A DNA stretch of 63,835 bases from a virus. Position numbers and translations under genes: made by a program. Numbering within the stretch: the stretch's first letter is position 1; each line of letters opens with the position of its first letter. Location: positions 1 to 63,835 of IMG/VR virus record IMGVR_UViG_3300024432_000013; one strand, 5' to 3'. Below are positions 11,962-51,035 of this stretch, in pieces. Below the pieces are notes generated by a model, which saw only the letters and a list, made by a program, of their open reading frames with translations, searched no databases and had not been told where the DNA came from.

Positions 11962-12750
11962 TTGGAGGGATTTTTAGATGACAAAGAATTTTTTAAAGCA
12001 CTGGCTGTAAAGGTCTGTTATGAGGCAGCGGCACGGGACTTGACAGGTTCTAGAAAAAAGTTTAATGTAGACGAGCTTTCACATAAGGGCAGAGTTAATT
12101 TAGACCATTTCAAGGAAATTTCCAGGAAACTTCAGGTAATGGAAGTAACTGTCGAAGACTTTATCGGAGTGATGTTCAATCACTATAAATGGCCACGAAA
12201 AATGGCAGGCAGACTCTTCAATTACCCCTATCTCTCGTTCCTCGCATCAGACGGAGCAATGTCAATGTTCAGGCGGGGATATAGGGAGCTTAAATCATCA
12301 TACGGACATATAAAAATGTTTAGACGAGTAATTCGGTCAGGCGAGGGCGGGAGCCTTGAAATAAAATTCGGCGGCTGTTTCTATACGGGGTTTGACTATT
12401 TGTATTCGGCAGTAGAACAGTTCGGATTCGCATACTTTGAACGCCCGATAAATCTGCTCTCTTTCTTCTTTGCAAATAACGAGATGTTCTCACCCGAGTT
12501 CATCTGTTTGCATAAATCGTTTCGGAAAATGCTAAAACAACAGGAAAGCTTGCTCGGCGTAGAAAGGAAATTAGCTCATGTAATATGTGAGTATGTATCG
12601 GCAGTAAGACGCAGGGCACGCACCGATAACCATTATCATAGACGGCTCGGTCGAGCATATCGAGCCGTAAGAGAGAAAGAAGGAGGAGACATCGAAAAGC
12701 AAAGGAAGAATCTCAGGAACTGGAAGCGCGTATGGCTCCTTCTGAGATAA
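11962..12750 (+). CDS. hypothetical protein upstream of DnaB (262 aa)
   Basis: TTG at 11962 follows AAGGAG at six-base spacing; an earlier TTG (11947) precedes that site. The protein is helical with an acidic start and a strongly basic C-terminal quarter. Its 3' end overlaps the DnaB start by 19 bases. Position and length would suit a helicase loader or accessory factor, but no loader motif or ATP site is visible, so this is only contextual. Confidence 0.6.
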   Translation: MEGFLDDKEFFKALAVKVCYEAAARDLTGSRKKFNVDELSHKGRVNLDHFKEISRKLQVMEVTVEDFIGVMFNHYKWPRKMAGRLFNYPYLSFLASDGAMSMFRRGYRELKSSYGHIKMFRRVIRSGEGGSLEIKFGGCFYTGFDYLYSAVEQFGFAYFERPINLLSFFFANNEMFSPEFICLHKSFRKMLKQQESLLGVERKLAHVICEYVSAVRRRARTDNHYHRRLGRAYRAVREKEGGDIEKQRKNLRNWKRVWLLLR

Positions 12751-15125
12751 GTACGTTAGAGACCAGTGTTCTCCCGTCAGCAATGCAGCTTGAGGTCTTG
12801 TCATTCCTTGTCCGTGATAGGGAAACGATGGTTCGGTTCATAGAGTCGATAACCGAGAGAAACTTTGAGAACCCGGTGCACAGGGTAATCTATAACATCG
12901 CACGCAGGTATTTCCTCGCCTATCTACGACCGCCACCACGCAGGATATTAGAACGTGAGTTAGATCGTTGGATTCATGCCAATGAAGACTCGCAGGTAGT
13001 AGGACCCGATTATTTCTGGACCGAAGTAGACAGGCTCTATAACATTCCACTTACAGAACGGCAGTACCTGTTAGATAAAGTAACCGATTTCCTGGTCAGG
13101 TATGAATGCGGAAAGTTGGGAGAGCAGGCAATCCAGGCAGTAAGGGTCGATACGTTCAATGCCGATAGTGTTATGCGGGCTATAACAGCGTTCATATCAG
13201 TGCAGTCGGGACAGATGAAATCGAGGATGGAGTATCTGTTAAAAGACGCAGAAACCCGGGTGCGGGAAGAACCAACGGCTCATAGAATTAGTACGGGGTT
13301 GCGTACCTTGGATAAAGTGTTGGGCGGAGGTCTCGACGTCGGGGAACTTGGCATAGTCTTGGGGCCGACAGGCATGGGAAAATCACACTTGTTAATAACC
13401 TTTGGGTCACATGGAATGCAGCAACGTCATAGGGTTCTGCACGTAACACTTGAGCTATCGAAAGAGAAAGTACTGGGCAGGTATGAAGCGTTCCACACCC
13501 GTATTCCAAAAGCAGAGCTCTTTGATAAGATGGATGATGTTGTCAGGCATCTAACACGGATGAGAAGCTTGGTTCAGCCTGCAGATGTGCTTGTTATAGA
13601 GTACCCGACTCGCGGTTTGACAGTAGACGAATTCCGAGCAGCAGTATCGCAGGCCGCAGTAGGACAGTCGTTCATACCCGACTTAATAATACTCGATTAT
13701 GCAGACATACTCAGACCGTCAAAGGAAGAACGGAGCGAGAAGCGGTATGAAGTACTCATGGCTATGTATGAACGTCTCAGAGGCTTGGCACAGGAATTCC
13801 ATGTTCCGATATGGACGGGATGTTTGCGAGGAAACGTTGAGGTCGCTCTTCCCGAGGGAAATGTTCCGATAGGAGAGTTAGAGGGAAAACGGGATTTTTG
13901 GATATGGGCGTGGGATATACCAATGAATAAACCGAAGGTGGCAAAGGCGAGTAAGTGTGTAAAAACAGGCACAAATGTATCGTTAGTGCGAGTGGGCTTT
14001 GATGACGGAAGTCATGTTGAGTGTACGGAAGATCATAAGTTTTTACTTCGAGATGGATATAAAGAAGCTCGTCATCTTCAGGAGGGAGATTCTTGTCGAA
14101 TTATTGTTCGAGATGAGTATAAGCATCGGCGTTCGATATATAACAGACTGCGAATAAAAAGAAAGTGGATATCAGAACATCGGTTTGTGTGGGAGCAGAT
14201 TCATGGTAGAAAAGTAAGAAAGACCGAGGCTATTCATCATAAGGATTTTAATCCCAAGAATAATCATCCAGAAAACTTGGTTTGTATGTTGGGAAAGCGT
14301 CATCAACGGTTTCATAAGGAGTTAGCAGATGGTTTGTTTAATGCAGGACGGAGCGAGAGAAATAAGAAGATGTTAAGCGAATTGAGAAGGGTGGATAATC
14401 CCATGTGGAAATCGGGAGTCAAGGAGAAAATGATAAGGAGTAAATTAAAGTTTTATGAGGGTTTGACAAAAGAGCAGAGGCAAAGGATGTGTTCGAATAG
14501 GACGACCCTTAGGAAGGGAGGATCAAATCCGTATGATTTAGTAGTGGTGAGAGAGAAGACGAGCAAAACAGTTAAGAATCAGTGGGCGAGTATGACCGCA
14601 GAGGAGAAATCAAAGAAGTTGAGAGGTGTGAGAGGTTGTTGGGGGAGGGTTCGAAAGAGAGATCGCAGCACAGGCAGGTTTGTTTCTCAGAATCATAAGG
14701 TTCTCTATGTTCGGAGAATAGGACGAGGAAATGTGTATGATATTGAAGTTCCAGAGACTTCAAATTTTATTTTGGGAAATAGAGTGGTAGTTCACAACAG
14801 TCAAGCCCGTCGTACCGCGCTGGGGAAGAAAGTAATAACAATAGCAGACATAGGAGAGTCGTTTGGTAAAGCACAGGTGGCCGACGTTGTACTTTGCATT
14901 TGCAAAACGAAGACAGAAGAAGAAATGAATTGTGGCCGTTTTTACGTGGGCAAGAACAGGGATAATCCGGGTCACATCGTAATTCCGTTCCGGCAGGATT
15001 TAGATTATAGCAGATTTTCTGAGCCGGCGGACGCTCATGCCCAGGAGATGGCGCCGTCAGAGGTTGAGTACGATGTGGCCCGGTATGAACAAAAACCCGA
15101 TGACGACGAGCAAGTGCCATTTTGA
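12732..15125 (+). CDS. dnaB: replicative DNA helicase DnaB, interrupted by an intein
   Basis: Hexameric 5'-3' helicase that opens the phage replication fork. The N-terminal domain (residues 1-150) matches DnaB-N. The RecA-like motor has Walker A GPTGMGKS near residue 213, the THEL-like VTLELSKEKV, and Walker B LIILDYADI. The motor is split after VPIWTG by a 326-residue in-frame intein (C364 to N689). The host protein resumes with SQARRTALGKK and an ADIGESFGKAQVADVV motif, giving 471 residues after splicing, a normal DnaB size. The C-terminus ends acidic (DDDEQVPF). Co-translated with the upstream 262-residue protein. Confidence 0.9.
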   Translation: MAPSEISTLETSVLPSAMQLEVLSFLVRDRETMVRFIESITERNFENPVHRVIYNIARRYFLAYLRPPPRRILERELDRWIHANEDSQVVGPDYFWTEVDRLYNIPLTERQYLLDKVTDFLVRYECGKLGEQAIQAVRVDTFNADSVMRAITAFISVQSGQMKSRMEYLLKDAETRVREEPTAHRISTGLRTLDKVLGGGLDVGELGIVLGPTGMGKSHLLITFGSHGMQQRHRVLHVTLELSKEKVLGRYEAFHTRIPKAELFDKMDDVVRHLTRMRSLVQPADVLVIEYPTRGLTVDEFRAAVSQAAVGQSFIPDLIILDYADILRPSKEERSEKRYEVLMAMYERLRGLAQEFHVPIWTGCLRGNVEVALPEGNVPIGELEGKRDFWIWAWDIPMNKPKVAKASKCVKTGTNVSLVRVGFDDGSHVECTEDHKFLLRDGYKEARHLQEGDSCRIIVRDEYKHRRSIYNRLRIKRKWISEHRFVWEQIHGRKVRKTEAIHHKDFNPKNNHPENLVCMLGKRHQRFHKELADGLFNAGRSERNKKMLSELRRVDNPMWKSGVKEKMIRSKLKFYEGLTKEQRQRMCSNRTTLRKGGSNPYDLVVVREKTSKTVKNQWASMTAEEKSKKLRGVRGCWGRVRKRDRSTGRFVSQNHKVLYVRRIGRGNVYDIEVPETSNFILGNRVVVHNSQARRTALGKKVITIADIGESFGKAQVADVVLCICKTKTEEEMNCGRFYVGKNRDNPGHIVIPFRQDLDYSRFSEPADAHAQEMAPSEVEYDVARYEQKPDDDEQVPF
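13821..14798 (+). mobile_element. HNH homing-endonuclease intein within DnaB
   Basis: Splicing block A starts at Cys364 (CLRGNVEVALPEG). Block B contains CTEDHKFLL, with the His expected of the TxxH motif. The C-terminal blocks are VYDIEVPETSNFILGN and VVVHN, followed by Ser as +1 residue. The middle third holds an HNH-type endonuclease core (AIHHKDFNPKNNHPENLVCM then KRHQRFHKE), so the element could home into intein-less alleles. Boundaries come from the first Cys and the terminal HN|S junction and restore an uninterrupted DnaB. Confidence 0.9.
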
Positions 15126-20223: not shown

Positions 20224-22548
20224 ATGATTCCAGTCAAAAAAGGATGTTCAACGTGTCCATTTTTAGGGCGTTCAGTCGTTCCACCATCAGGCGATGTCAG
20301 CAAAGCAAAAGTAATCATTATCGGTCAAGCTCCCGGAAGAGAAGAAATTCCGGCGATGCGTCCGTTTGTCGGTAACGCAGGCAGGCTTTTGTGGAAAGAG
20401 TTCGAGACGTTAGGCATTCATCGGTCCGATTGTTATGTGACAAATGTAGCAAAGTGTCGCCCAGACCCAAAACCCGAAGGAGGAGACGAAGCCCCACCAA
20501 CAACTGTGAGAAAGCATTGTTCCGTGCAGTTTGAAGAGGAGTGGAAAGCCGTCAAAGCTCGAAAAATAATAATCGTTCTTTTCGGGAATCCCGCAACGAG
20601 TCACTTTTTGGGCCGAGCAGGGTCTACGGTAAGGGCGAGGGTTATTACTCATAAAGGAAATGATTATTACCCGTTATGGCATCCAGCTTTTCTCACGAGG
20701 AAAGAGGGAGCTATTCCAGTATGGAGAAGGCATCTTTCAATCCTTCCATCGCTAATGAAGAAAGTGAAAGCACATAAAACAATCAAGTATGATGTCATCA
20801 CCTCTCCAATTGTATTTGAAGAATGTGTTGGGTATTTTCTAGCTTGTAAAGAATTTGCGTTCGATATAGAGACGACGACCAAGCGTCCCACAGATGCGGG
20901 AGCAAGGATACTTACGATGTCAATATCCGATGGTGTTAGGACCTCGGTAGTTGATTTAGAGAAATTGGGAAATTCGGTCGATGCTCATTTAAAACGTCTA
21001 CTTGTATCAAAGCCAGGAAAGATAGCGCAGAATGCGAAGTTCGAATTAGTGTGGATGGCCATTAAGAAGCATTTTCTTGTTCAACCCATAGTATTCGACC
21101 CGTCAATAGCTCAGTATCTCATAGCGGAGGGTACAGGAGCAGGAGTGGCGTTAAAACAGATGGTATGGACGTATATGCCCGAGTTCGGAGGTTATGATAG
21201 CGGTATTGACAAGGATAACATGGCGGGTATGGATAGAAAGAAAGTCTATGAGTATAATGCCATAGATTCTTACGTCACGGCCAAGCTGACGGATATTCTC
21301 AGACCATTGATAGAGAAGGGCGGGTTCTCATATGTTATGAACAGTGTAATGCTTCCAGGAATTTTTCCAGTGACAGAGATGGAGGTGTCAGGTCTTAAGG
21401 TAGATGTACCCGGGATGGATAAGCAGAAGTTAGTGTTAGAGGATATGTTGAAAAAGACTCACGCTGCAGTTTTAAAACTTCCCGCAGTGAAGAAGGTTGA
21501 GGATTTTTCCATAACATCAACGCCCGCATTGCGTCGCTTGTTTTACGGCGAGTTAGGTTATCGGATTACAGCGAGAACAGCTAAGTCCAAAGTTCCAGCG
21601 TTGACAAAGGATATGATAGAGCGGTGGGCAGTCGATGGAAATACCGAGGCCGTCATGCTTCAAACGTATAAAAAGACACGAAAGGTACTTAAGACTTATT
21701 ACGAGAATTATAAGAAGATGATTACTCGCAGAGGGTATCTTCATCCAGTGTATAACATGACAATTTCAAAAGGAGGGAGATTGAGTTCGGGATCACCCAA
21801 CATTCATAATGTGCCAGTTCCAGTCAGGCATATCTTCGTTTCAAGGTTTCCAGGGGGCGTCATTCTTCAAGCAGATTTTAAGCAGATAGAATTGAGGGTT
21901 ATAGCGTTTCTGGCTAACGATGAGAAGATGTTAGACATTTTCCGTTCGGGCAAAGATCCGCATCGTGCTGTAGCAGCCGAGATTTTCAATGTGCCATATG
22001 AAGATGTTACGAAAGAGCAAAGGAGCGCGGGTAAGAATATAGGGTTCGGAATGTCTTATGGAATGGGTCCCGAATACTTGGCTGATAAAGAGAGAAAGTC
22101 GTTAGCGTGGGCAAAAAAGTTTCATGATAATTATTTCAGGAAGTTCTATAAAATAAGAGAGTGGCAACAGAGACAACAGGCAATAGCAGAGAGCGGTGTA
22201 GCAAAGCGGCGCTCATTGTTTGGTAGGGTCAGGGACATGTCAGCCTACTCAGGGATGGATAGAGTGAAAAGATTTTATAACTTTCCAGTTCAGTCAGCGG
22301 CGTCAGATATTAATCTTTTTGCTATCGGCGCAATATGGGAAATCATGAGGAGTGAGAAACTTAAATCACGGATGATAGCCACTGTCCATGATAGTCTGGT
22401 TGTAGATTGCGTGAAAGAAGAAGTGGAGAGAGTAAAGGAGATAATGGTGTTAGTCGTAGCGTCCCTTGATGGTATATTTGATTGGATGACTGCTCCCATG
22501 GAAATTGACCTGACGACAGGTAAAAACTGGAGCGAGGCATCGGGATGA
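20224..22548 (+). CDS. DNA polymerase I fused to a uracil-DNA-glycosylase-like domain
   Basis: Residues 1-185 look like a family-4-type UDG-superfamily domain: CSTCPF, KVIIIGQAPGREE, RPFVGNAGRLLW, YVTNVAKCRPD and LWHPAFL. Residues 205-365 form a 3'-5' exonuclease with FDIETTT at Asp214 and a final YNAIDSYVT. Residues 400-774 form a family A polymerase: motif A DFKQIELRV (Asp551), motif B RSAGKNIGFGMSYG (Lys604, Phe608) and motif C VHDS (His722, Asp723, Ser724, replacing the Glu of bacterial Pol I). Phe608 equals the E. coli Phe762 position. It is the phage replicative polymerase. The UDG-like part may read or exclude uracil, or be structural. Confidence 0.92.
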   Translation: MIPVKKGCSTCPFLGRSVVPPSGDVSKAKVIIIGQAPGREEIPAMRPFVGNAGRLLWKEFETLGIHRSDCYVTNVAKCRPDPKPEGGDEAPPTTVRKHCSVQFEEEWKAVKARKIIIVLFGNPATSHFLGRAGSTVRARVITHKGNDYYPLWHPAFLTRKEGAIPVWRRHLSILPSLMKKVKAHKTIKYDVITSPIVFEECVGYFLACKEFAFDIETTTKRPTDAGARILTMSISDGVRTSVVDLEKLGNSVDAHLKRLLVSKPGKIAQNAKFELVWMAIKKHFLVQPIVFDPSIAQYLIAEGTGAGVALKQMVWTYMPEFGGYDSGIDKDNMAGMDRKKVYEYNAIDSYVTAKLTDILRPLIEKGGFSYVMNSVMLPGIFPVTEMEVSGLKVDVPGMDKQKLVLEDMLKKTHAAVLKLPAVKKVEDFSITSTPALRRLFYGELGYRITARTAKSKVPALTKDMIERWAVDGNTEAVMLQTYKKTRKVLKTYYENYKKMITRRGYLHPVYNMTISKGGRLSSGSPNIHNVPVPVRHIFVSRFPGGVILQADFKQIELRVIAFLANDEKMLDIFRSGKDPHRAVAAEIFNVPYEDVTKEQRSAGKNIGFGMSYGMGPEYLADKERKSLAWAKKFHDNYFRKFYKIREWQQRQQAIAESGVAKRRSLFGRVRDMSAYSGMDRVKRFYNFPVQSAASDINLFAIGAIWEIMRSEKLKSRMIATVHDSLVVDCVKEEVERVKEIMVLVVASLDGIFDWMTAPMEIDLTTGKNWSEASG

Positions 22549-23737: not shown

Positions 23738-23780
23738 ATATAGTGTTTACGGTGCGGTATGGTAGGACGAGGTGTGGTTT

Positions 23781-25181
23781 GTGAGCGAGATGAAAGTTAG
23801 AAAGATTTGTGAGCAGTGTGGAAAGGAATTTGAGGCTTTCCCATATAAGATTAAGGTGGGCAAGGGAAAGTTTTGCTCAAAAAAATGTTCTGATTTAGCT
23901 CAAACTGGTCCGGTTATCGAATTAAGGTGTTTGAATTGTAAGAAGGAGTTTGAGGTTAGTTCTTATAATAGCCAACGTAAGTTTTGTTCGAGGAGGTGTA
24001 TGGGTCAGTATAAGAGAGGAGAAAAACATCCGAATTGGATTGGTGGGGAAATAGAGGTTTTGTGTAGCAATTGTGGTAAGGGAGTCAAGAGGTATGCGAG
24101 GCAAGTAGCAAAAAGGAAATGGAATTTTTGTAGTCGTGCTTGTCAGAAGGAGTATTTTAGTAGGAGGGGATTGAGCATATCGGGTTGCGGTCCAGCAAAA
24201 TGGGGGAAGGTCGAGAAAGAATGTATTCAGTGTGGCCGAGAATTTCAGGTGCGTTCGTCTGAAAGCTTCCGTAAGTTTTGTTCGCGGGAATGTTATTTTT
24301 CGTGGCGTCGTACAAGTGAAGGGCGAAGGATGATTCGTTCAAGATGGAAAAGTCCGGAGTACAAGGAGAATTGGAAGAGGAAGGTGGCATTGGTCAGGGA
24401 CAAAATGAGTAGAAAACAGTCGAAGACAATGAAATTGGTGTGGGGAAGGCCGGGATATAGGGTAGCTACGGTTGAGAAAATGAAGCGGGCATGTGCGAAC
24501 CCACAAACAAAGCTGAGAAGGGCCGAGGCCATTAAGGGGAATTGGCAAGATTCCAATTATTTGTTCAGTTATTATAAGGGTCAGATTTTTGGGCGGGGGT
24601 TTGATGACGCTTTATTGATGGAGTTGGACAGGGAATTGATTCAGGCGAAGGTTCAATTGCATGGTATTTGTCAGGGAATTAAGGAATTGGTTTGCAAGTA
24701 CTGTGGGAGGGAGTTTGAGGTTTCCGGTGATGATCAGGTAGTAAGAAAAGAGTATTGTTCCAGGGAGTGTGCGAATTTGAGCAGGAGGTTGCCAGGGGTT
24801 GTTTTAAGGTGTCTGGGTTGTGGGAAAGAGTTTGAGACTACAATGAGTCTTGCTGTTCGGTATCATCGTAGATTTTGCTCTCGGAAGTGTTCTGCTCAGT
24901 TTTTGCGGGGAGAAAATCATTCGAACTGGAAGGGGGGAATGGCAGTAGTTGCTTGTGCATATTGTGGGAGGCAGTTGAAACGATATCCTCAACGGTTAAA
25001 GCAGACGGAGAGGAGTTTTTGTAATGCAAAGTGCCGATCGGCGTATTTCTTGGAAAGGGGATTGCATATTAGTGGCGAACCCAGGATCACAGGCAACCCA
25101 GGGTTAGATAGGGAAATAATTCGGGCGCAAGTCCGATTATTTAAATCCAATAAAAAGGAGGTCAGTCATGAATCAAGCTAG
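23781..25181 (+). CDS. seven-zinc-finger, homing-endonuclease-like protein
   Basis: About 466 residues with seven CxxC...(F/Y)C(S/N)xxC units, for example CEQCGKEF...FCSKKC, CLNCKKEF...FCSRRC and CAYCGRQL...FCNAKC. Four units lie in the N-terminal half and three in the C-terminal half. The halves are partly duplicated: NWIGGEIEVLCSNCGKGVKR with RGLSISG matches NWKGGMAVVACAYCGRQLKR with RGLHISG, and LDRELIQAKVQL matches LDREIIRAQVRL. The central basic region resembles modular DNA-binding segments (NUMOD type) of homing endonucleases. No nuclease active site is obvious. GTG 23781 forms a GTGA overlap with a 16-codon leader frame (23734-23784); GTG 23772 and ATG 23790 are alternatives. Confidence 0.6.
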   Translation: MSEMKVRKICEQCGKEFEAFPYKIKVGKGKFCSKKCSDLAQTGPVIELRCLNCKKEFEVSSYNSQRKFCSRRCMGQYKRGEKHPNWIGGEIEVLCSNCGKGVKRYARQVAKRKWNFCSRACQKEYFSRRGLSISGCGPAKWGKVEKECIQCGREFQVRSSESFRKFCSRECYFSWRRTSEGRRMIRSRWKSPEYKENWKRKVALVRDKMSRKQSKTMKLVWGRPGYRVATVEKMKRACANPQTKLRRAEAIKGNWQDSNYLFSYYKGQIFGRGFDDALLMELDRELIQAKVQLHGICQGIKELVCKYCGREFEVSGDDQVVRKEYCSRECANLSRRLPGVVLRCLGCGKEFETTMSLAVRYHRRFCSRKCSAQFLRGENHSNWKGGMAVVACAYCGRQLKRYPQRLKQTERSFCNAKCRSAYFLERGLHISGEPRITGNPGLDREIIRAQVRLFKSNKKEVSHESS

Positions 25182-25571: not shown

Positions 25572-25591
25572 TATAGGAGGTGAGTAAGAAA

Positions 25592-26392
25592 ATGGAAACT
25601 AATGGTTTTAGTACGTTGGCAAATGCCCTCTATTTTATCCAGAAGGCGAGGGTAGCGTCTCAGGTGAGAAAGACGCATCTTGCACTGAGGAAAGAAACTT
25701 GCAGTGTTACCGAAGAAGTGTTAGAGAGGACAGCAGATGTAGAAACGTGGCTTAACAACAAGGTAAAGGAATTAGTTAAATCGCACCCCGCTTATCCCTG
25801 GTTCAAGAACGTAAAGGGTATAGGCGATCTGAATATCGGCAAGGTCGTTAGCCTTATCGATATTGAGAAAGCGAGTTTAGTAAGTAAACTGTGGAGGTAC
25901 GCGGGAATGGCACCGGGCCCCGATGGCAAAGCAGAACGACAGGTCTCAGGACAGAAGCTCCATTATAATAAGGTTCTTAAGTCTATGTGCTGGCGGGTAG
26001 CCAAGAGCTTAATCAGGGCAAAAGGTTCGTATTATGAGTACTATCGCGAGCAGAAAACAAAGATACTGGCCCGGTTGAAGCGAGAGGGTTATACAGTCGT
26101 CCCATCGTTAGAGTTACCAATAGAAAAGGATCCGAAAACGGGCAGGAAGAAGCACGTTGAGAAAGATGGGTTTTTCGGGCTGGGTCACGCGGACGGCATG
26201 GCTCAACGCAAGATGATAAAGCTTTTTCTCTCCCACTTATGGTTAGAATGGAGAACGGCGGAAAAGCTTCCCATTTCAAAACCATACGCCCATGCTATTC
26301 AAGGTCATTCCGATTATCGACCGCCAGAGGATTTTATTGAGATAAAGGAGGTAACCAAAGCCAAAACCGATGAGAAATCCACATCTCCCTAG
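25592..26392 (+). CDS. Tas-like (Nop/IS110 C-terminal domain) protein
   Basis: The 266-residue protein has an N-terminal helical/coiled-coil part (residues 1-70) and then VKGIGDLNIGKVVSLIDIEK, SKLWRYAGMAPG, SGQKLHYNKVLKSMCWRVAK and a GSYYEYYREQK helix. This is the pattern annotated as the IS116/IS110/IS902 transposase C-terminal domain, which is related to the Nop domain that binds box C/D-like RNA. The DEDD/RuvC N-terminal catalytic domain of true IS110 recombinases is absent, and the usual Ser of their G-x-(I/L)-S-K-x-G motif appears to be Lys. It is therefore unlikely to transpose. With the 36-bp two-repeat array beginning inside its last codons, it best fits a nuclease-less Tas (TasA-like) protein of a TIGR-Tas system. 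Start chosen for AGGAGGTGA spacing. Confidence 0.72.
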   Translation: METNGFSTLANALYFIQKARVASQVRKTHLALRKETCSVTEEVLERTADVETWLNNKVKELVKSHPAYPWFKNVKGIGDLNIGKVVSLIDIEKASLVSKLWRYAGMAPGPDGKAERQVSGQKLHYNKVLKSMCWRVAKSLIRAKGSYYEYYREQKTKILARLKREGYTVVPSLELPIEKDPKTGRKKHVEKDGFFGLGHADGMAQRKMIKLFLSHLWLEWRTAEKLPISKPYAHAIQGHSDYRPPEDFIEIKEVTKAKTDEKSTSP

Positions 26393-27409
26393 CGAGCTGT
26401 TATCATTGAGTAATCCAGAGTATTTGAGCGAGCCAGATTATGAGAGAAATCCACATGCAATGAGCGAGCTATTAATATCGAGAAATCCACGATTTCTGAG
26501 CGAGCTATGTATTGTAAGAAATCCCTAACATATGAGCGAGCCGATGATATGGAGAAATCTGAGATACAAAAGCGAGCCACAATGCAATGAGAATTCCATT
26601 ATTCGAAAAGCGAGCTAACAAGAATGAGAAGCCCACGGCATACGAGCGAGCCTGCGAGTGGAAGAAACCCATTTGGCTTAAGCGAGCTACTCTTAAAGAG
26701 AAACCCAGGTCAATCAAGCGAGCTAACATAATTAAGGAATCCAGAAATTATAAGCGAGCTTTCGATAGCAAGAAATCCTCGGTTAAAGAGCGAGCTACCT
26801 TTAAAGAGAATTCCATTGTTTATGAGCGAGCTATTGACATGGAGAAACCCTTGTAGCAAGAGCGAGCTATCGCATGAGAGAAGTCCAAATAACCGAAGCG
26901 AGCTATTTGAAAGAAGAAATCCGATAAAGAGGAGCGAGCCTCAATAGTTGAGAAATCCAACTGAGTAAAACGAGCCAATCAATGTGAGAATTCCAATGTC
27001 AACGAGCGAGCCAGCATTGAAGAGAAATCCACGCAGAACGAGCGAGCTAATCTAGGTGAGAAACCCAATAAGAAAGAGCGAGCTAGTCAACTTGAGGAAT
27101 CCAAAGATTTCAAGCGAGCTGTAGGTCATAAGTAATCCATTATGGTAAAGCGAGCCTTTGATAATTAGAAATCCGAGAAATCTAAGCGAGCTAACCGCGG
27201 GGAGAAATCCAATTTCCTTGAGCGAGCTAATTGATATGAGAAATTCATTCATGGGGAGCGAGCCAAGACCGAAGAGGAATCCAGTCCTTCAGAGCGAGCT
27301 AATTGAGCGGAGAAACCCACATTAGTAGAGCGAGCTACCATTTTTGAGAAACCCATTGAATTGAAGCGAGCCAAAATGAATGAGAAACCCGTTGAGATTA
27401 AGCGTATTA
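26372..27409 (+). repeat. TIGR-like array: two alternating 10-bp repeats with 8-bp variable segments
   Basis: Period 36 bp throughout, except one 38-bp unit near 26572. Each unit is repeat R1 (consensus RAGCGAGCYA), 8 variable bases, repeat R2 (consensus RAGAAAYCCA), 8 variable bases. I count 28 good R1 copies (core GCGAGC from 26392 to 27366; one has ACGAGC) plus one decayed terminal copy at 27400, and 29 R2 copies, the first at 26372-26381 within the Tas-like coding end. The roughly 57 variable 8-mers show no similarity to one another. Several stop codons interrupt every frame, so it is noncoding. CRISPR arrays have a single repeat and long spacers, so this is not CRISPR. The 36-bp dual-repeat, dual-spacer layout matches TIGR arrays, whose transcripts are cut into about 36-nt guide RNAs. 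Confidence 0.85.
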
Positions 27410-50354: not shown

Positions 50355-51035
50355 ATGACAGTTTCTTACAGGAATAATACGAGTATTCGGCAGGTCAGAT
50401 ATGATCAGTATGGCATTCCACATATGGCGGAACCGGGTGAGACTATAACATATGAGACAGATCCAGGAGGCGGAGCCCCTCGTGGGTATACAGGGGCGAC
50501 GTATCAATATCCGAGACTCGCTGCATCCTCTTTTGCTTTGATTACAGCGAGTATCATGCAAAATGCGGTACACGAAGGAAATGCGTTTATGGTAAGTCAG
50601 AGAACCGCCCTCGATGAATTTGATATGGACGCTCCATTAACATTTTACATCATAGTGCCAGACACTCTCAAATGGGCTCACCTAAGTATCTTTTGTGACG
50701 CGAATACTCCTGCGTATTGGGAATTGTTTGAAGATGGAGGCGATCCTTCTAAGTTTGATGTGTCGGGAGGAGTTGCCGTAGTGCCCGTAAATAGAAATAG
50801 AAATTTGAGCAGTGGCGAATCAGGGCTTACTATCACGAAGGGAGCCACAGTGGACAAGGCCGACGCTGCGTGTTGTATAGCAACTGAAGTAGCGGCAAAA
50901 GCGGCAGATGAGTCTCAGCGCGTCGGGGTTGTTCTAAAGCAGAATACGAAGTATTTGGTGAGGGCGATGTCTTATGCCGATAACAATGAGGGGAGTCTCA
51001 GATTGAAATGGAAGGAGATGACAGATATGGAATAA
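50355..51035 (+). CDS. putative virion protein with QVRYD...PGET motif (226 aa)
   Basis: Residues 3-32 carry the motif SYRNNTSIRQVRYDQYGIPH then PGET, shared with the proteins at 52430, 56941 and 57903. The rest is a beta-rich domain (LTFYIIVPDTLKWAHLSIFC, PAYWELFEDGG) like phage surface or neck proteins. No enzyme motif. GGAGGTG before the ATG. Confidence 0.6.
   Translation: MTVSYRNNTSIRQVRYDQYGIPHMAEPGETITYETDPGGGAPRGYTGATYQYPRLAASSFALITASIMQNAVHEGNAFMVSQRTALDEFDMDAPLTFYIIVPDTLKWAHLSIFCDANTPAYWELFEDGGDPSKFDVSGGVAVVPVNRNRNLSSGESGLTITKGATVDKADAACCIATEVAAKAADESQRVGVVLKQNTKYLVRAMSYADNNEGSLRLKWKEMTDME

What the first reader, a model, noticed from the sequence alone, without database searches (positions are those of the whole stretch)
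25592..27409. Phage-borne TIGR-Tas-like system: Nop/IS110-like protein plus 36-bp dual-repeat array
The sequence shows about 1 kb of strictly 36-bp units in which two distinct 10-bp repeats (RAGCGAGCYA and RAGAAAYCCA) alternate with two unrelated 8-bp variable segments, directly after a gene with an IS110 C-terminal/Nop-like domain. As I recall, TIGR-Tas systems reported in 2025 have this layout: edge and loop repeats, paired spacers, about 36-nt guide RNAs and a Nop-domain Tas protein. About 57 variable 8-mers would give about 28 dual-spacer guides.
Basis: partly seen in the sequence, partly recalled or inferred. Interest (0 to 1): 0.96.

Follow-up and report, generated by a model that had tools for sequence, protein, structure and literature searches.

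The report
Phage TIGR-TasA locus with 29 guides
This phage carries a TIGR-Tas system, a recently described RNA-guided DNA-binding machine, in a form without a DNA-cutting domain and with an unusually long list of 29 guides; it is a clear new member of a known family, and a few of its guides are also carried by distantly related phages, which gives a handle on the unsolved question of what such guides target.

Summary
After a 266-aa Nop/IS110-C-terminal-like gene (25592-26392) lies an array (26359-27404) of alternating 10-nt repeats RAGCGAGCYA (edge) and RAGAAAYCCA (loop): 29 dual-spacer units, all with 8-nt spacers except unit 7 (9+9). The protein matches NCBIfam TIGR_Tas_endo at 185 bits (cut-off 100); its AlphaFold model finds TasH/TasR cryo-EM structures as its ten best PDB matches; and 44 of 47 virus contigs retrieved by array pattern alone encode a Tas protein. 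The truncated edge repeats at both array ends predict RAGCG^AGCYA processing and guides of 36 nt (38 for unit 7). With no nuclease domain it is a TasA-type effector. TIGR-Tas is published (Faure et al. 2025, PMC12045711), including phage loci, so this is a new member, not a new kind. What I add concerns the guides: they turn over fast (tas 95% identical, 3 of 12 guides shared), yet a few persist between phages whose tas genes are saturated at synonymous sites. The guides do not match their own genome. I searched for targets in virus contigs and Cloacimonadota genomes and found none that withstood controls. Processing, DNA binding and function are inferred.

The parts
25592..26392 (+). tas gene, TasA type (Nop-domain RNA-binding protein, 266 aa, no nuclease domain); ATG start about 10 nt after AGGAGG; upstream in-frame GTG at 25580
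   Evidence: NF052498 185 bits, E 1.7e-54; PF02371 just under cut-off, 20.3 of 21.3; PDB TasR/TasH by sequence and fold
26359..27404 (+). TIGR array: 29 units edge(RAGCGAGCYA)-spacer A-loop(RAGAAAYCCA)-spacer B
26359..26363 (+). 5'-truncated edge repeat (AGCCA) that opens the array, inside the tas coding sequence
   Evidence: sequence; same AGCYR half-repeat opens the arrays of L002, L003, L004, L124
27400..27404 (+). 3'-truncated edge repeat (AAGCG) that closes the array; with the 5' half it predicts processing RAGCG^AGCYA and 36-nt guides (5+8+10+8+5)
   Evidence: RAGCG also closes the arrays of L003, L004, L073, L124
26431..26466 (+). guide 3 (GATTATGA/CATGCAAT), also in L003 and L002 with 2-3 changes
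26721..26756 (+). guide 11 (ACATAATT/GAAATTAT), both spacers identical in L002
26829..26864 (+). guide 14 (TTGACATG/TGTAGCAA), in L002 with 2 changes
26973..27008 (+). guide 18 (ATCAATGT/ATGTCAAC), in L073 with 2 changes
26570..26607 (+). unit 7, the only irregular unit: two 9-nt spacers (38 nt)

Best explanation
It is a phage-borne TIGR-Tas locus of the nuclease-less TasA type. The tas gene and array lie in one direction with the array starting inside the gene, so they are probably transcribed together (inferred). The transcript is cut in the middle of each edge repeat (RAGCG^AGCYA) into 29 guides, 36 nt each (38 for unit 7), with Tas needed and probably a host RNase cutting (by analogy with the published systems). 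A TasA dimer holds one guide; spacer A pairs with one DNA strand and spacer B with the adjacent stretch of the other, giving a 16-bp site, spacer A followed by the reverse complement of spacer B. Without a nuclease the complex should bind and bend the site and hinder its transcription or replication rather than cut it. The sites are probably not in the phage itself but in the host or in other mobile elements (inferred). Most guides are replaced quickly; a small core is kept.
For: Family. Array architecture and ends. Array predicts gene: 46 of 49 contigs have Tas, 44 of the 47 found by array pattern alone. No nuclease: only the Nop/IS110-C-terminal part matches. No stable fold of the predicted 36-mers (z -1.9 to +1.5), as the paper expects for naked dual-repeat guides. 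Not self-directed: no site with 0-1 mismatch in the own sequence at hand for about 1,300 guides in the right order. Conserved guides: window guides 3, 11, 14, 18 recur in L002, L003 or L073; 4 pairs with 2 or fewer of 16 differences against 0 in 200 re-pairings, while tas third codon positions are only 38% identical between window and L002. Mechanism of binding and processing: PMC12045711.
Against: No RNA or binding data exist for this locus. No rho-independent terminator was found after the array, whereas the paper calls one typical. No target was identified: guide 3's site in virus contigs lies in many unrelated genes, guide 14's gave 2 hits in unrelated contexts, guide 3 gave none in 147 Cloacimonadota genomes. 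A weak excess of exact sites in other TIGR phages (8, one an array artefact, against 0-3 for re-paired guides) is not convincing.
Confidence: 0.75

Rival explanations
1. The array is a set of protein-binding sites (iterons) with meaningless spacers, for example a replication origin near the SSB and UvsX genes, and Tas is a DNA-binding or transposase-like protein.
For: The array lies in the replication/recombination module, between tas and an SSB gene.
Against: Spacers would then drift at random, but particular A/B pairs are kept across phages with saturated tas divergence. The protein belongs to an RNA-guided family with solved guide-RNA structures. Two different alternating repeats with 8-nt phased spacers and half-repeats at both ends are unlike iterons.
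Confidence: 0.03
2. An IS110-family insertion sequence or its remnant beside an unrelated repeat.
For: Weak PF02371 match and PHROG label 'transposase'.
Against: No DEDD catalytic domain in the 266 aa. Fold and profile matches to TasH/TasR far exceed those to IS621 or ISCro4. The gene travels with such arrays in 46 of 49 contigs.
Confidence: 0.01
3. A TIGR-TasA locus whose function is regulation of the phage's own genome or help to its own recombination, not action on foreign DNA.
For: TasA has no nuclease and the paper itself raises regulation or integrase assistance.
Against: No guide has a site with 0-1 mismatch in the own window or flanking contig sequence in the expected order. No integrase was seen among the genes checked.
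Confidence: 0.12
4. Conserved guides are not under selection but were recently exchanged between phages by recombination of array units. (This concerns only the guide-conservation part and is compatible with the best explanation.)
For: Window unit 11 and its L002 counterpart share both spacers and the unusual loop AAGGAATCCA. Shared units are not always in the same order.
Against: Other shared guides carry 2-3 differences, and guides Y and Z keep the same three-unit spacing in L002, L073 and L124 with unrelated guides between them, which block exchange does not explain easily.
Confidence: 0.4

Closest known systems
TIGR-TasA dual-repeat systems (Faure et al. 2025, PMC12045711; e.g. FpTIGR of Flavonifractor plautii)
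   Same: Single Nop-domain protein without nuclease, adjacent array of alternating edge and loop repeats, 36-nt units, truncated edge repeats at the ends, found in phages.
   Different: 8-nt spacers (18 nt combined in FpTIGR, 16 nt here); 29 units (paper: most often 5-15); no rho-independent terminator found; array starts inside the tas gene; box motifs RAG...CYA rather than TasR's UG...CCA.
SpTIGR-TasH of Salicola phage CGphi29 and TasR 9mty
   Same: Same fold and guide layout; SpTIGR also has 16-nt combined spacers.
   Different: Those carry HNH or RuvC nuclease domains and cut DNA; the window protein lacks them. Identity in the shared part is about 19-25%.
Microcystis phage Mvi-JY20 (PP438412.1) hypothetical protein XAI95461.1
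   Same: Closest isolate-phage relative by tblastn (32%); I found a similar unannotated array right after it (edge ATGCGAGCC, loop ACGAAACCC).
   Different: About ten units, followed by a terminator-like hairpin; different repeats.
L002, L003 (IMG/VR), L004 (Cloacimonadota MAG contig), L073, L124
   Same: 57-68% identical Tas, same edge and loop repeats, some shared guides.
   Different: Array lengths from 12 to 22 units, mostly different guides; different neighbouring genes.
IS110-family bridge-RNA recombinases (IS621)
   Same: Nop-like RNA-binding domain homologous to Tas (TM about 0.49).
   Different: No DEDD domain and no bridge RNA here; guide array instead.

Membership tests
TIGR-Tas (dual-repeat type) | Tas protein with Nop domain | tested here: met
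   NF052498 185 bits vs cut-off 100; fold match to TasH/TasR
TIGR-Tas (dual-repeat type) | Two distinct alternating 8-12-nt repeats | tested here: met
   10-nt edge and loop repeats, 29 units
TIGR-Tas (dual-repeat type) | Unique paired spacers of about 8-12 nt | tested here: met
   56 spacers of 8 nt and two of 9 nt, no duplicates
TIGR-Tas (dual-repeat type) | 36-nt unit with truncated edge repeats at both ends | tested here: met
   AGCCA at 26359, AAGCG at 27400, unit 36 nt except unit 7
TIGR-Tas (dual-repeat type) | Array genetically linked to tas in relatives | tested here: met
   46 of 49 contigs
TIGR-Tas (dual-repeat type) | Rho-independent terminator after the array (typical, not defining) | tested here: not met
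   None found between the array and the SSB gene
TIGR-Tas (dual-repeat type) | Transcription and processing to 36-nt tigRNAs bound by Tas | not testable with these tools
   Needs small-RNA sequencing
TIGR-Tas (dual-repeat type) | Tandem-spacer DNA binding on both strands | not testable with these tools
   Needs biochemistry; no natural target found
TasA subtype | No HNH or RuvC domain fused to the Nop domain | tested here: met
   266 aa, matches only the Nop/IS110-C-terminal region
TasA with TasParB operon | ParB-like gene next to tasA | tested here: inconclusive
   Several neighbours were identified and none is ParB-like; the 106-aa upstream ORF has no significant match
IS110 transposon | N-terminal DEDD domain | tested here: not met
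   No such domain; PF02371 match covers residues 72-151 only
CRISPR-Cas | One repeat type of 25-36 nt with long spacers | tested here: not met
   Two 10-nt repeats and 8-nt spacers

The most novel reading that the evidence does not exclude
Phage TIGR-TasA arrays combine a fast-changing set of guides with a small core kept by selection over long phage divergence, so that the core guides point to conserved targets in the host or in rival elements, and the arrays are renewed without any known adaptation gene, partly by replacing spacers in place.
Probability: 0.35. Interest if true: 0.8.

Novelty: new member of a known kind. Interest (0 to 1): 0.5.

Why it matters
The discovery paper states that natural targets, the role of nuclease-less TasA and the way arrays grow are unknown. 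This locus has 29 guides, a well-defined predicted processing site and five relatives with the same repeats and partly the same guides. The conserved guides 3, 11, 14 and 18 are the natural first choices for a target hunt, and closely related pairs such as L002/L003 allow guide turnover to be measured.

Tried and rejected
Self-targeting: none. Tiling of one locus by several guides: not above re-paired controls (the TTGACAT overlap of guides 14 and 18 is within chance). Codon-like (synonymous) variation between shared guides as a sign of coding targets: 43 synonymous changes against 42 in the null, p 0.46. Kinase lead: guide X of L002/L124/L073 (TGYTCWGG + AGACATGT) hit five Cloacimonadota genomes, all in Ser/Thr kinase genes at YMSPEQ, but the same 16-mer in virus contigs falls in many unrelated genes, always as MSPEQ, and other guides show no kinase motifs; treated as a recurring peptide, not a target. 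Guides W and Y in 147 Cloacimonadota genomes: no hit. Guide 3 site in virus contigs: 31 hits in many unrelated genes. Shared guide GAAGGACA+CGTAAGGA in virus contigs: 1 hit. Rfam: nothing in the window. PADLOC: no defence-family match for tas and five neighbours. Mycobacteriophage hits: no phased repeat array seen near the one checked.

Full report
What is there. The window is the whole of one virus record of 63,835 bases, a tailed phage with a Pol I-type polymerase, gp32-like SSB, UvsX-like recombinase, SbcCD-like pair, terminase and portal genes. Between a 106-aa gene and the SSB gene lies a 266-aa gene (25592-26392) followed without gap by an array of 29 units (26359-27404). Each unit is edge repeat RAGCGAGCYA, 8-nt spacer A, loop repeat RAGAAAYCCA, 8-nt spacer B; only unit 7 has 9-nt spacers. 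Repeats are 80-85% alike among units, spacers about 27%, that is, unrelated. Exact edge repeats occur 20 times in the array and nowhere else; shuffles give 0.5. The first unit begins with half an edge repeat (AGCCA) and the last ends with the other half (AAGCG), as the discovery paper describes for TIGR arrays (PMC12045711). The two halves fix the likely processing site at RAGCG^AGCYA and the guide length at 5+8+10+8+5 = 36 nt (38 for unit 7).

What the protein is. It matches the NCBIfam equivalog TIGR_Tas_endo with 185 bits, cut-off 100, TasR and TasH by sequence, and its AlphaFold2 model (pLDDT 89, pTM 0.83) finds TasH and TasR complexes as its ten best PDB matches and IS110-family recombinases next. 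There is no HNH or RuvC domain, so it is of the TasA type. PHROGs call the family 'transposase', which is the usual mislabel.

Relatives. Five loci have Tas 57-68% identical and the same repeats: L002, L003, L073 and L124 (IMG/VR) and L004, a contig in a Cloacimonadota MAG. Only one other of 147 Cloacimonadota genomes holds even a distant Tas, so the host is not settled. A pattern made from the repeats alone retrieved 119 virus stretches (a capped list). Of 49 contigs tested, two of them found through the protein, 46 encode Tas. Microcystis phage Mvi-JY20 also has an unannotated array after its Tas gene.

Guides across phages. From about 109 arrays I compared about 1,200 guides. Between L002 and L003, tas is 95% identical in DNA, yet only 3 of 12 guides are shared; similar turnover is seen in other pairs such as L020/L038. 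Against this, window guides 3, 11, 14 and 18 recur in L002, L003 or L073, with guide 11's spacers identical in L002, although tas third codon positions of window and L002 are only 38% identical. Re-pairing spacers gives no such matches at 2 or fewer differences in 200 trials. In L002, L073 and L124 two other guides keep a three-unit spacing with unrelated guides in between. This argues that spacers carry information, against an iteron reading, and that arrays change partly in place. Selection and unit exchange are both possible causes. I found no mention of guide sharing between phages in the passages of the discovery paper I read or searched.

Targets. By the paper's rules (opposite strands, 8-nt 3' overhangs after cutting, gap 0-2) the site should read spacer A, then the reverse complement of spacer B; this order is my derivation. 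No guide has such a site with 0-1 mismatch in its own sequence at hand; for the window this covers the whole record. In 2.7 Mb of TIGR-phage DNA the expected order without gap gave 8 exact sites, one of them an array artefact, against 1-5 for other orders and gaps and 0-3 for re-paired guides: a hint at most. Searches of conserved guides in virus contigs and Cloacimonadota genomes gave no target that withstood controls. The window spacers are AT-richer than the phage (33% against 44% GC), and spacers of 58 arrays are on average 7 points below their contigs while correlating with them (r 0.60), which again speaks against an origin from the own genome, or for a preference for easily opened sites.

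Mechanism. Shown here: gene family, fold, array anatomy, linkage of array and gene, guide turnover and partial conservation. Taken from the published systems: processing to 36-nt guides, one guide per Tas dimer, pairing of both spacers with opposite strands, strong bending of the site. Inferred: joint transcription of tas and array, silencing or blocking without cutting, and foreign targets. No terminator was recognised after the array, so the transcript may run on into the SSB gene.

Verdict. The locus is a clear, long-array member of the published TIGR-TasA group in a phage, hence not a new kind. Its value lies in the conserved guides and in the set of relatives that make target and array evolution testable.

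Noticed in passing
window 12732-15125: DnaB-like helicase (residues 17-362) with an HNH endonuclease region at about 475-626 in the same frame: possible intein or homing-endonuclease fusion.
   Followed up: no
window 23772-25181: 469-aa protein made of many CxxC zinc-ribbon-like repeats; PHROG label HNH endonuclease, but the match may cover only the zinc-ribbon parts. It lies two genes upstream of tas.
   Followed up: no
window 50395-50410 (-): Exact 16-nt site (TACTGATC+ATATCTGA) for a guide of another TIGR phage, L019; about 0.03-0.04 such exact hits expected for all guides tested (my estimate), so suggestive only.
   Followed up: partly
L004 2662-2915: Two units of one array (3 and 8) have the same spacer B (TCATCTTT) with different spacers A, so half-guides can be duplicated or swapped independently.
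   Followed up: no
L162 3060-3405 (PP438412.1 about 22085-22430): Unannotated TIGR array of about ten units after hypothetical protein XAI95461.1 in the isolate Microcystis phage Mvi-JY20: a cultured host system for target tests.
   Followed up: partly
58 arrays incl. window 26359-27404: Spacers are systematically AT-richer than the phage that carries them (mean -7 points GC, window -11 points).
   Followed up: partly
L019, L020, L065, L099, L122: Near-identical guides (1-3 differences) within one array, a sign of unit duplication followed by drift.
   Followed up: no
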